In this document: piece after piece, positions 634 through 21,175 of the stretch
How the letters are laid out: every line of letters starts with the position of its first letter
Numbering within the stretch: position 1 is the first letter of the stretch
NCBI GenBank assembly: GCA_049969715.1
Contig: JBMFOH010000027.1
Coordinates: 1 to 23,330, forward strand
Origin: JBMFOH01 sp049969715 [NCBI: bacterium]
GTDB lineage: Bacteria; DUMJ01
Direction: 5' to 3'
Length of the DNA: 23,330 nt
Notes under the pieces: generated by a model
Databases searched by the model: none
What the model was told of the DNA's origin: nothing
The model's input: only the letters and a program-made list of their open reading frames with translations
Made by a program: the position numbers and the translations under genes

Positions 634-2427
634 GTGAAGATGAAAGGGAAGATATCTTGGTTATTGGTCATTATTATTTTATCTTTTCTCTTTATCACCT
701 CTATTACCTATGCAAAGAGCTATTGGCTTCCACAGGTAGATTGTAGAATAGATGTTCTTGAGGATGGAAGCTTAAAATGGAATTATCTACTCAGATTCTC
801 TTTTAGCGGTAAATTTTCATATGCCTATGTTGATATACCTACTACAGGGGTAATAGTAGAAGAGATCTCTGCAACCGAACCATTTGCCATTGAGTTTAGA
901 AATAGCACTTTAAGGATAAGGTGGAATTTTTCTGCCGAGAATGAAGACAGAATATTCAAGCTATCGTACAAAATGAGAAGGGCTCTTAAGATTTATAACG
1001 ATATTGCAGAGCTCTATTGGAAGGTCTGGCAAGAAGGCTGGGATGTAAAGGTAGGGAAACTAACGGTAAATGTCTTCTTGCCTAAGCCTGCCTTATCTAG
1101 AAGTCTATTATATGTGTGGGGACACCCGAGACTACCAGGAAGGGTTGGTATCCTAAATACCCTTAATGGATTTTCTCTAGAGACAGAGGATGTTCCTGCT
1201 CGTCAGTGGGTTGAGATAAGAGCTCTCTTTCCAACGACGATTCTATCCTCTTATAATGGGGCTAATAGAATCAATAGGAATATGTTAGAGAGTATCCTTA
1301 AAGAGGAAGAGCGTTTTACAAGGGAAACGGAGAGAGAAAATCTCTACCTTTCAGTTGCTATTATCGGTGCTTTAGGGATTTTCCTCTCAATGATTATAAT
1401 TTTGATATATCTTTACTTTATATATGGGAGAGAACCAAGGGTTAATTATCAAGGTATCTATGAGAGAGAAATTCCATACGATTATCCACCAGCTGTAGTA
1501 GGAGCCCTTATGGACTTAAGATCAATGTCTCCAGATCCAAAGGATTTTACAGCAACTCTGCTAGACCTTGTCCATAAGGGATATATAGATATGACTCCTG
1601 TTGGAGATGACTATCTACTCTCATTAAGAAGAGATAAAGATAGAAGTAAACTAGAGCCTTTTGAGATATATGTCCTAGACTTTCTAGACGAGATAACTTG
1701 GAAGGAAGAAGGATTCCTTTTTTCAACTCTAAAAAGGTATATAGAGGATGATCCATTAAAGTTTCAAAAAATATATAAGCAGTGGGAAAATTCAGTAAAG
1801 AGTAAAGTTCAAGAGCTTGGATTTTTTGATGATAAAGGCTTTAGATTAGCTAACAAGATATCTACTTCATTTTTCGTCCTAGGGTTATTTCTCTTAACAC
1901 TCTATATAGTTCTTTTTAAATCTGGAAAGGCTTATTCTGTGATTTGGAATCCGCTTATTGGAGCTAGTATTGGGCTACTTATAAGTGGGATCTTCGGTAT
2001 TATTATCGCTATTATCTTTAAACCAGGATTTAGTAAGAGGACAGAGAAAGGAGTCTTACACTATAAAAGATGGAATAATCTAAAGAGGTTTCTGGCTGAT
2101 TTCAGTCAGTTAAAGAATATGCCTCCAGAGTCCATAATACTCTGGGAGAAGTATCTTATATATGGAATCTCTCTAGGGGTTGCAGATAAAGTTGCAAAGA
2201 GTATGAAGATACTTGTACCAGAAATCTCGGAGGGTATTAGCAGGTCTCCAATATTATACTCATATGCTAGAGGAGCAGAGATTACATCTTTTGCCAGTAT
2301 ACTAAATAGTTTCTCTTCAGCGGTTCGCTCCGCCGCCTATTACTCTCCTTCCTCTGGCGGAGGCGGTGGATTTTCCGGTGGTGGAGGAGGCGGAGGTGGC
2401 GGCGGAGGAGGTGGAGGTGCAGGATAG
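634..2427 (+). CDS. DUF2207 family membrane protein with poly-glycine tail
   Basis: The protein has 597 residues and unknown function. An N-terminal signal/anchor helix (about residues 7-27) leads into an extracytoplasmic beta-rich domain. That domain begins YWLPQVDCRIDVLEDGSLKW and is typical of DUF2207 proteins. A second membrane helix lies at about 243-267, followed by a cytoplasmic part, two more helices around 410-430 and 438-465, and a second soluble region. The last ~23 residues are almost pure glycine (FSGGGG...GAG), a tail often seen in this family. The start is GTG at 634 (MKMKGK); ATG at 640 is an equal alternative. Neither has a strong ribosome binding site, and an in-frame TAA at 625 excludes anything longer. 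The gene is alone on its strand, and its stop directly touches the stop of the convergent GH3 gene. Confidence 0.85.
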   Translation: MKMKGKISWLLVIIILSFLFITSITYAKSYWLPQVDCRIDVLEDGSLKWNYLLRFSFSGKFSYAYVDIPTTGVIVEEISATEPFAIEFRNSTLRIRWNFSAENEDRIFKLSYKMRRALKIYNDIAELYWKVWQEGWDVKVGKLTVNVFLPKPALSRSLLYVWGHPRLPGRVGILNTLNGFSLETEDVPARQWVEIRALFPTTILSSYNGANRINRNMLESILKEEERFTRETERENLYLSVAIIGALGIFLSMIIILIYLYFIYGREPRVNYQGIYEREIPYDYPPAVVGALMDLRSMSPDPKDFTATLLDLVHKGYIDMTPVGDDYLLSLRRDKDRSKLEPFEIYVLDFLDEITWKEEGFLFSTLKRYIEDDPLKFQKIYKQWENSVKSKVQELGFFDDKGFRLANKISTSFFVLGLFLLTLYIVLFKSGKAYSVIWNPLIGASIGLLISGIFGIIIAIIFKPGFSKRTEKGVLHYKRWNNLKRFLADFSQLKNMPPESIILWEKYLIYGISLGVADKVAKSMKILVPEISEGISRSPILYSYARGAEITSFASILNSFSSAVRSAAYYSPSSGGGGGFSGGGGGGGGGGGGGGAG

Positions 2428-5743: not shown

Positions 5744-5772
5744 TTGCTAACATCTTCCATATATGGTATACT
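5744..5772 (+). promoter_or_regulatory. Promoter of the rpsB-led operon
   Basis: TTGCTA (5744-5749) and TATACT (5767-5772) are exactly 17 bp apart, and TG before the -10 makes an extended -10 element. Transcription should start near 5779. A perfect 10-bp palindrome CCATATATGG (5757-5766) fills the spacer next to the -10. A direct repeat CTAACATCT (5733-5741 and 5747-5755) overlaps the -35. Confidence 0.75.
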
Positions 5773-5789
5773 TTCACAAGAAATCAGCA

Positions 5790-5852
5790 TGCTCCACAGT
5801 CTCTAAGTCTACCGCGAGGTGGCAGTGGAGCAAAAGTTTAACTTAGAGGAGG
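5790..5852 (+). promoter_or_regulatory. Structured rpsB leader, candidate S2 autoregulatory RNA
   Basis: Three mutually compatible helices account for most of the 5' UTR. P1 is a perfect 8-bp stem (TGCTCCAC 5790-5797 with GTGGAGCA 5825-5832). Inside it P2 (5809-5813 with 5818-5822, one G-U pair) closes a GCGA tetraloop. The loop segment CTCTAAGT (5801-5808) is perfectly complementary to ACTTAGAG (5841-5848) downstream, which would make a pseudoknot. That last strand runs into the AGGAGG Shine-Dalgarno (5847-5852) of rpsB, so folding could block initiation. S2 is known to repress rpsB-tsf through its leader in E. coli. That this RNA does the same is inference. No match to a named RNA family was checked. 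Confidence 0.6.
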
Positions 5853-5859
5853 AGAATAT

Positions 5860-6650
5860 ATGGCAGTAGTAAGTATCAAACAGCTCTTGGAAGCCGGGGT
5901 TCACTTTGGACACCAAACTAAACGTTGGAATCCAAAGATGAAGCCCTATATTTTTGCTGAAAGGAATGGCATCCACATAATAGACCTTCAGAAAACAGTT
6001 GCCTGTATAGAGGCTGCGTATGAAGTAGTAAGAGATATATCTAGTAACGGGGGAAAGGTTTTATTTGTTGGAACAAAGAAGCAGGCGTACGAAGTAATTC
6101 AGGCTGAAGCAACAAGGTGTGGAATGCCGTATGTAAATCAGAGGTGGCTTGGAGGATTACTTACAAATTTTCAGACGATAAAAACAGGGATAAAGAAGCT
6201 CAAAGACCTTAGAGATGCAAAGGAGAAAGGACTTTGGGATTCTTTTACTAAAAGGGAGAGAAAACATTTAGAAACTGAGTTGAATCGTTTGGAAAAGTAT
6301 CTTGGTGGTATAGAGAGTATGGAAGACCTACCTAGTCTTCTCTTTGTAGTAGATATAAAGAAGGAAGAGAATGCAGTAAGAGAGGCTAAAAGAGTGGGTA
6401 TTCCTACCGTGGGGATAGTAGATACAAATAGCGATCCGGAACAGGTGGAATATCCTATCCCTGGAAATGATGATGCGATAAGGGCTATAAAGTTATACTG
6501 TAGTAAGATAGCTGATGCGGTCTTAGAGGGGATAGGGGCAAGAAAGGAAGAGACAGAAGAAGAGATATCAGAGATGCCACCGATAGAGGAATTACCACCA
6601 GATATAATAGAAGAAAAAGAGCAAGATGAATTCAAGGAGGATGTGATATT

Positions 6651-6654
<4 letters not shown>
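5860..6654 (+). CDS. rpsB: 30S ribosomal protein S2
   Basis: This is a structural protein of the small ribosomal subunit that binds late in assembly near S1 on the back of the 30S. The protein has 264 residues and starts [20 protein letters not shown]. The central coiled-coil region (about 105-150) and the [14 protein letters not shown] signature are intact. It ends in a ~35-residue acidic, proline-containing tail ([18 protein letters not shown]...), slightly longer than usual. ATG 5860 has AGGAGG 7 nt upstream. It is the first gene of the 16-gene run and follows a structured leader that probably controls it. Its TGA overlaps the TTG start of tsf by 4 bp, so translation of the two is probably coupled. 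Confidence 0.99.
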
Positions 6655-20608: not shown

Positions 20609-21175
20609 ATGAGACTCAAAAGTCTTTCCTCAAGAGATATAACCTATACATCTATGTTTACAGCATTGGCTATACTTTCTGCCGTTATTGTAAGATTAGG
20701 TACAGGGACGATGCTTGTTCCGTTTAGTCTTCTACCAATGATAGCATTACTTTCAGGTATAGTTCTAGGTTCAAGATTAGGGGCTATAAGTATGTCGCTT
20801 TATGTACTATTAGGACTTATTGGAGTTCCTGTATTTTCCTCCCCGCCATACGGGGGACCTATATATATTCTAAAACCTACATTTGGATTTCTTTTGGGAT
20901 TTATCTTCTCTTCTTGGGTGGTGGGTAAGGTTACAGAAAAAAAGGGCTACTACCTTTTGGCATCTCTTTTAGGACTCTTGGTAATCTATCTTATAGGTTT
21001 ACCATATCTTTATATAATCCTGAACTTCTATCTAGGTAGTAGCACAAACTTAAATGGGGTCCTTAGACTAGGATTTTTCCCTTTTATTATTCCAGATATA
21101 ATAAAATCTATCATCTCATCGATTGTAGCTAGAATTATTGCTTCTAGAGTTATCCTTCCTAGGTTAACCCCTTAG
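20609..21175 (+). CDS. bioY: BioY biotin uptake protein (ECF transporter S component)
   Basis: BioY is the membrane protein that binds biotin for ECF-type uptake. The 188-residue protein has about six helices. The family's central stretch reads YVLLGLIGVPVFSSPPYGGP and is followed by LKPTFGFLLGF. The energising EcfA/EcfT genes are not in the window, so it either uses a shared ECF module elsewhere or works alone, as some BioY proteins do. No biotin-repressor site or riboswitch can fit in the 5-bp gap from the GH57 gene, so it appears to depend on upstream transcription. It is the last gene of the long run and converges on the ABC permease with 6 bp between stops. Confidence 0.93.
   Translation: MRLKSLSSRDITYTSMFTALAILSAVIVRLGTGTMLVPFSLLPMIALLSGIVLGSRLGAISMSLYVLLGLIGVPVFSSPPYGGPIYILKPTFGFLLGFIFSSWVVGKVTEKKGYYLLASLLGLLVIYLIGLPYLYIILNFYLGSSTNLNGVLRLGFFPFIIPDIIKSIISSIVARIIASRVILPRLTP

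What the first reader, a model, noticed from the sequence alone, without database searches (positions are those of the whole stretch)
5779..5860. rpsB leader can fold into a hairpin with GNRA loop plus a pseudoknot reaching the Shine-Dalgarno
Seen: an 8-bp perfect stem (5790-5797/5825-5832), an inner 5-bp stem with a GCGA tetraloop (5809-5822), and an 8-bp perfect complement between the loop (5801-5808) and the segment running into AGGAGG (5841-5848). All three can exist together and use nearly every base of the leader. Known: E. coli S2 represses rpsB-tsf through its leader. Inferred: this is an S2-responsive or otherwise ligand-responsive RNA that shuts rpsB when the pseudoknot forms, in a lineage where such a leader may not be described.
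Basis: partly seen in the sequence, partly recalled or inferred. Interest (0 to 1): 0.78.

Follow-up and report, generated by a model that had tools for sequence, protein, structure and literature searches.

The report
Known-type S2 leader RNA with pseudoknot
The stretch in front of the ribosomal-protein S2 gene really is a conserved folded RNA with a pseudoknot next to the ribosome-binding site, but it is a divergent member of a leader type described in 2009 that is thought to let S2 control its own production.

Summary
All three helices are at the stated coordinates. P1 plus the pseudoknot scores 16 perfect pairs, reached by 30 of 20,000 shuffles.

The leader is kept in 3 of 3 genomes of the nearest held lineage (S2 76-80% identical), behind the same -10 region. 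Against 18 Atribacterota leaders, 10 of 16 pairs change on both sides (19 of 500 shuffles as high), 4 of 8 in the pseudoknot; 93.7% of cells pair (0 of 500).

The layout matches the "rpsB motif" of Meyer et al. 2009 (PMC2704228, rpsB section read): stem P1, optional P2/P3, pseudoknot to the strand after P1. Rfam's RF01815 and RF00127 do not match the window. A model of 45 leaders from other lineages finds its three relatives (E 9e-5 to 5e-3); the window's leader is that model's best match in the window, but only at E 0.18.

The GNRA loop is not conserved. Best reading: S2 autoregulation of rpsB-tsf translation, inferred from E. coli and not tested. A new, divergent member of a known kind. A competing fold pairing P1's 5' strand with the Shine-Dalgarno is possible but weakly supported.

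The parts
5744..5772 (+). predicted sigma-70-like promoter TTGCTA-17-TATACT; transcript start inferred near 5779
   Evidence: 0.9 such sites expected by chance in the stretch; the TATACTTTCACAAGAA stretch is identical in the 3 relatives
5787..5791 (+). GCAUG at the foot of P1, matching the RCAUG/CACACG element of other rpsB leaders
5790..5797 (+). P1, 5' strand
   Evidence: 6 of 8 P1 pairs change on both sides among 22 leaders
5801..5808 (+). pseudoknot, 5' strand CUCUAAGU
   Evidence: invariant in 4 of 4 close leaders; 4 of 8 pairs change on both sides among 22 leaders
5809..5822 (+). P3 hairpin (5809-5813/5818-5822); GCGA loop not conserved
5825..5832 (+). P1, 3' strand
5833..5840 (+). linker between P1 and pseudoknot (AAAGUUUA; aligns with GAGG and the A-rich linker of other rpsB leaders)
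5841..5848 (+). pseudoknot, 3' strand ACUUAGAG, overlapping the Shine-Dalgarno by two bases
5847..5852 (+). Shine-Dalgarno AGGAGG
5860..6654 (+). rpsB (ribosomal protein S2), followed by tsf
   Evidence: Pfam PF00318, E 1.8e-99; tsf PF00889, E 1e-43

Best explanation
5779-5859 is the 5' untranslated leader of rpsB-tsf and a divergent homologue of the widespread rpsB (S2) leader RNA. P1 closes a loop whose strand just 5' of hairpin P3 pairs with the strand just 3' of P1, forming a pseudoknot that abuts and slightly overlaps the Shine-Dalgarno. Most likely mechanism (inferred from E. coli, not shown here): surplus S2, perhaps with S1, binds and holds the pseudoknotted fold, hinders 30S loading at the adjacent Shine-Dalgarno, and so lowers translation of S2 and, through coupling, of EF-Ts. 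Shown: the helices, their conservation, their covariation, their position. Inferred: transcript start, S2 as ligand, repression.
For: Same layout in 3 of 3 genomes of the nearest held lineage, P1 kept through changed bases, pseudoknot strands invariant. The pseudoknot pair pattern occurs at one site per genome in 3 of 3, just upstream of rpsB. Over 22 leaders 93.7% of cells pair (shuffled mean 77.0, 0 of 500 as high), with 63 double-changed cells against 17.5 (0 of 500) and 10 pairs changed on both sides against 7.2 (19 of 500); slid registers fall to 36-50% paired. Layout agrees with the published rpsB motif. Model R3, made from 45 leaders none of which is from this lineage, finds L122, L123 and L115 (E 8.7e-5, 0.0014, 0.0051) and ranks the window leader first of 14 matches in the window in the same register. 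Sub-threshold Rfam matches (RF01815 E 0.0072 in L088 and 0.0075 in L022, RF00127 E 0.0028 in L022) tie two leaders used to build R3 to the known families. S2 control of rpsB-tsf in E. coli: review passages.
Against: The window leader alone is not significant with any model: R3 E 0.18, R2 E 1.9 as second of 17 matches, no R1 match at the site, no Rfam rpsB or t44 match. R1 also missed L115, L122 and L123, and R3 run over whole genomes with strict filters missed all three. Motif bases nearly constant in the leaders collected here (GGU/ACC, GAGG after P1) are changed in the window. On the four close leaders alone the pair counts do not beat shuffles (100 of 500 as high for cells paired and for covariation score, 126 of 500 for double changes); the pseudoknot there never varies, so its covariation rests on comparison with other phyla. 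No binding or expression data.
Confidence: 0.8

Rival explanations
1. A conserved folded leader of the same ancestry that no longer senses S2 and simply sets a fixed translation rate, S1 recruitment or mRNA stability.
For: No functional data; bases nearly constant in the other leaders collected (GGU/ACC, GAGG) are changed here, so S2 contacts could be lost. Pseudoknots are named as high-affinity S1 targets in the review passages.
Against: The full layout, P1 pairing and invariant pseudoknot persist in 4 of 4 leaders of the lineage.
Confidence: 0.1
2. An unrelated leader that arrived at a similar fold and responds to another ligand (a metabolite or EF-Ts).
For: Window alone below significance in every homology model tried.
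Against: Relatives are found by a model that excludes them, in the same register; same place, strand order and closeness to the Shine-Dalgarno; shared RCAUG foot, and CAGAAG after P1 in the three relatives against CAGAGG in Atribacterota.
Confidence: 0.07
3. Chance complementarity in an ordinary untranslated region.
For: 3 of 376 other tiles of the window score as high; nested folding of the 101-nt stretch is unremarkable.
Against: 30 of 20,000 shuffles; kept in 3 of 3 nearest genomes; covariation.
Confidence: 0.03

Closest known systems
rpsB motif of Meyer et al. 2009 (PMC2704228; that Rfam RF01815 is its model is recalled, from no call)
   Same: Directly before rpsB; P1, optional P2 and P3, pseudoknot between the junction strand 5' of P3 and the 3' extension after P1
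   Different: Pseudoknot of 8 pairs (paper: three in Firmicutes, five in the other groups) overlapping the Shine-Dalgarno; AAGU/ACUU in place of the GGU/ACC seen in most leaders collected here; GAGG after P1 changed to AAAG; no P2; no Rfam match
t44 RNA / S2 operator of gammaproteobacterial rpsB-tsf (Rfam RF00127)
   Same: Same gene and presumed ligand; RF00127 matches the Geobacteraceae rpsB leader L022 below threshold
   Different: No match in the window; the review says the E. coli operator does not involve the ribosome-binding site, whereas here the pseudoknot reaches it
Autoregulatory rpsO (S15) pseudoknot of E. coli and mycobacteria
   Same: Works-like comparison only: a leader pseudoknot at or near the initiation site bound by the encoded protein (review passages)
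   Different: Different gene, protein and, by recall, topology; no homology suggested or tested

Membership tests
rpsB motif (Meyer 2009) as a structural kind | lies directly upstream of rpsB | tested here: met
   rpsB starts at 5860, PF00318 E 1.8e-99
rpsB motif (Meyer 2009) as a structural kind | closing stem P1 | tested here: met
   8 pairs; 6 of 8 change on both sides among 22 leaders
rpsB motif (Meyer 2009) as a structural kind | P2 and P3 in the P1 loop, either may be absent | tested here: met
   P3 5809-5822 present, P2 absent; the paper allows this
rpsB motif (Meyer 2009) as a structural kind | pseudoknot between the strand 5' of P3 and the 3' extension after P1 | tested here: met
   5801-5808/5841-5848; 4 of 8 pairs change on both sides among 22 leaders; invariant within the close lineage
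rpsB motif (Meyer 2009) as a structural kind | homology shown by a model that excludes this lineage | tested here: inconclusive
   met for 3 of 3 relatives (E 8.7e-5 to 0.0051); window best match but E 0.18
rpsB motif (Meyer 2009) as a structural kind | near-constant bases GGU/ACC and GAGG seen in the leaders collected here | tested here: not met
   window has AAGU/ACUU and AAAG; relatives have AAGU/ACUU and GAAG. These constants come from my alignments, not from the paper's definition, which I saw only in words
Rfam RF01815 rpsB / RF00127 t44 | gathering score | tested here: not met
   no match to either in the window or in L122; sub-threshold in L022 (both) and L088 (RF01815). So not filed as a member of these Rfam families
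S2-autoregulated leader | S2 binds the leader and lowers rpsB translation | not testable with these tools
   needs binding and reporter assays

The most novel reading that the evidence does not exclude
In this lineage the leader may be a two-state switch built on one shared helix. With P1 formed, the pseudoknot helix only abuts the Shine-Dalgarno. With P1 open, the pyrimidine-rich 5' strand of P1 (CUC or CUCC) continues the same helix onto the GAGG/GGAG of the Shine-Dalgarno and buries it, and S2 would choose between the two.
Probability: 0.12. Interest if true: 0.45.

Novelty: new member of a known kind. Interest (0 to 1): 0.27.

Why it matters
It adds a small, poorly sampled bacterial lineage (three genomes held) to the range of the rpsB leader. 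Half of the pseudoknot's pairs have changed on both sides there against Atribacterota while pairing is kept, which argues that the fold rather than the GGU/ACC bases is what is selected. Rfam's two models give no match in the window or L122 and reach no threshold in the 20 rpsB loci of other lineages that were scanned, so annotation of this leader looks incomplete.

Tried and rejected
Rfam at gathering score on the window and on 20 of the 80 rpsB loci gave no rpsB or t44 match. Permissive Rfam on the leader gave one match, by chance as judged, and two such for L122.

Model R1 (P1 of 18 Atribacterota leaders) did not find the window leader or its three relatives. R2 (pseudoknot treated as a nested helix) found the window site second of 17, E 1.9. 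R3 was then built on a broader set.

The GNRA tetraloop as a functional part was rejected because the loops of the three relatives differ.

Alternative fold burying the Shine-Dalgarno: it is the nested minimum in L115 and L123 but not in the window or L122. With randomised P1 strands it is as stable in 38, 38, 138 and 20 of 400 trials (window, L115, L122, L123). Kept only as the novel case.

A first 22-row alignment (A5) was one base out of register in the pseudoknot because I had cut the rows unevenly; I recut the four rows of the window's lineage and used A6. That recut was chosen knowing the expected pairing.

Rows dropped before counts. Of the 30 Atribacterota-phylum loci (L085-L114), 18 with the layout visible by eye were used for A1 and 12 were left out (L093, L101, L104, L105, L107-L114). 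A3 was made from 63 of the 80 loci plus the 18; 45 of those 81 matched at E 0.05. One search skipped 7 of 45 rows and tested the 20 non-Atribacterota rows left.

A guess at Dictyoglomus in the paper search gave two papers that do not bear on rpsB by their listing.

Full report
What was checked. P1 is 5790-5797/5825-5832, the inner stem (P3) is 5809-5813/5818-5822 with loop GCGA, and the pseudoknot is 5801-5808/5841-5848. The Shine-Dalgarno AGGAGG is 5847-5852 and rpsB starts at 5860. A promoter-like site ends at 5772, though 0.9 such sites are expected by chance in that stretch; its -10 region and the following TTTCACAAGAA are identical in three relatives, which makes it credible. The transcript start near 5779 is inferred.

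Chance. The combination of a perfect P1 and a perfect pseudoknot scores 16 pairs. None of 400 shuffles and 30 of 20,000 reach this; 3 of 376 other tiles in the window do. Nested folding is not decisive (z -0.60 for 101 nt; -2.26 for 82 nt).

Relatives. The window's genome is not held. Searching 291 genomes outward from an Atribacterota genome gave G102, and its phylum holds three genomes, G102, G299 and G300, whose S2 is 76, 80 and 77% identical to the window's. That the window belongs to this phylum is inferred. The leaders of all three have the same layout. P1's 5' strand is UGCUCCAC in the window and UGUCUCAC, UGCCUCAC and UGCCUCAC in L115, L122 and L123, each with a matching 3' strand (U-G pairs included). 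By the tool's count one pair changes on both sides (C-G in three, U-A in the window) and two on one side; on these four sequences alone the counts do not beat shuffles (100 to 126 of 500 as high). The pseudoknot strands are invariant, so within this group they say nothing for or against pairing. P3's stem is kept, at four pairs in L115, but its loop differs in each leader, so the GNRA loop is not a conserved part. The gene upstream is a cation efflux protein in the window and a different reading frame in the relatives (124, 466 and 466 codons within the loci; by recall, not by search, a Na/Pi cotransporter with a PhoU-like end), so the promoter and leader appear to stay with rpsB. The pair CTCTAAGT...ACTTAGAG, which reads the same on both strands, occurs at one site in each of the three genomes, just upstream of rpsB (positions).

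Wider comparison. By eye, many rpsB upstreams from other phyla show the same order of elements: a CACACG or RCAUG foot, P1, a GGU-containing strand, a hairpin, the P1 partner, GAGG, an A-rich linker, ACC, and the Shine-Dalgarno. A model of P1 from 18 Atribacterota leaders (A1; R1) finds, at E below 0.005, 27 of 80 loci within about 40 bases upstream of rpsB. Two of these (L001, L003) come from the same contigs as two rows used to build it, so 25 of 78 are independent and 53 of 78 were not found at that level. In A1, 95.6% of cells pair against 87.8% shuffled (0 of 500 as high), but the number of pairs with a change on both sides (5) was reached by 53 of 500 shuffles and the number of further pair types by 497 of 500. 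Adding the window and its three relatives (A6), 10 of 16 pairs change on both sides (mean 7.2 in shuffles, 19 of 500 as high), 63 cells do so (17.5 in shuffles, 0 of 500), further pair types are not special (77 of 500), and slid registers fall to 36-50% paired. Four of the 8 pseudoknot pairs change on both sides. Most of this comes from one split, this lineage against Atribacterota; a second independent change is seen in L086 and L088. Among 20 leaders outside Atribacterota the pseudoknot strands pair better with their own partner than with each other's (mean 3.65 contiguous pairs against 2.91; 8 of 10,000 shuffles as high).

Homology. A broad model (R3) from 45 leaders, none from the window's lineage, finds L122, L123 and L115 as its three best matches in those loci, at E 8.7e-5, 0.0014 and 0.0051. 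In the window its best match is 5781-5851, in the same register, but only at E 0.18, with a second match at 0.26. The window itself is therefore recognised mainly through its relatives. Run over 97 whole genomes with strict filters, R3 matched 21 at E 0.1 or better. Of the 14 below 1e-3, the 9 whose rpsB position was listed all lie next to rpsB; the position was not listed for the other 5. Of the 7 weaker matches at least 4 (G062, G087, G142, G148) lie on another contig than rpsB. That run missed G102, G299 and G300, and whether any of the 97 also supplied a row of R3 was not checked. Rfam RF01815 and RF00127 match leaders of other lineages below threshold (L022 both, L088 RF01815), which links the chain to the known families.

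What is known. Meyer et al. 2009 (PMC2704228; rpsB section read whole; other passages) described the rpsB motif with this layout, pseudoknot included, in Proteobacteria, Cyanobacteria and some Firmicutes. A 2024 review (PMC10931766; passages) says S2 represses rpsB-tsf translation in E. coli with help from S1, that the leader features are conserved at least across gammaproteobacteria, and that the mechanism is unclear. [quoted passage not shown] PMC2659441 (passages) lists RF00127 before Shewanella rpsB; PMC7247131 (one passage) lists rpsB only under a Bacteroidia L13 leader. Fu et al. 2013, Aseev et al. 2008 and Mustoe et al. 2019 are not held; I know them only from the review's passages and recall. 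Searches for rpsB with leader, pseudoknot, autoregulation, t44, Rfam or 'rpsB motif' listed no paper that, by title or start of abstract, treats this leader in a lineage like this one. They cover an open-licence library only, and the lineage could not be searched by name.

Mechanism. The best reading is S2-mediated translational autoregulation, the pseudoknot holding structure against the Shine-Dalgarno. A competing fold, in which the pseudoknot helix continues through P1's 5' strand onto the Shine-Dalgarno, is possible in all four leaders and is the nested minimum in two. With randomised P1 strands it is as stable in 38, 38, 138 and 20 of 400 trials, so it is not clearly special. It is offered as the novel case only.

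Verdict. It is a divergent new member of a known kind of leader, not a new class, and its ligand is inferred.

Noticed in passing
L013 upstream of rpsB (about 2612-2650) and L039 (about 1322-1355): In these deltaproteobacterial loci an extra small hairpin (GGAGAUC..GGUCUCC; UGAGAUC..GAUCUCA) sits between the leader pseudoknot and the Shine-Dalgarno, read by eye.
   Followed up: no
L101, L104, L105, L107-L112: A group of genomes in the Atribacterota phylum has AT-rich rpsB upstreams without a recognisable rpsB leader on reading, as if it had been lost within the phylum.
   Followed up: no
L020, L060, L075 rpsB leaders: The pseudoknot is 8 contiguous pairs long in these other lineages too, and in L020 and L060 its 3' strand (ACCAGGAG) runs into the Shine-Dalgarno, as in the window.
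   Followed up: partly
window 6651-6654: The listed tsf reading frame (first start codon TTG) overlaps the rpsB stop by four bases, which would favour translational coupling of S2 and EF-Ts; the true start codon is not known.
   Followed up: no
window 634-2427: A DUF2207 membrane protein with a long glycine-rich tail.
   Followed up: no
window 20609-21175: A BioY biotin-transporter component follows a GH57 hydrolase gene; none of the other 7 window proteins scanned against Pfam is a biotin gene.
   Followed up: no
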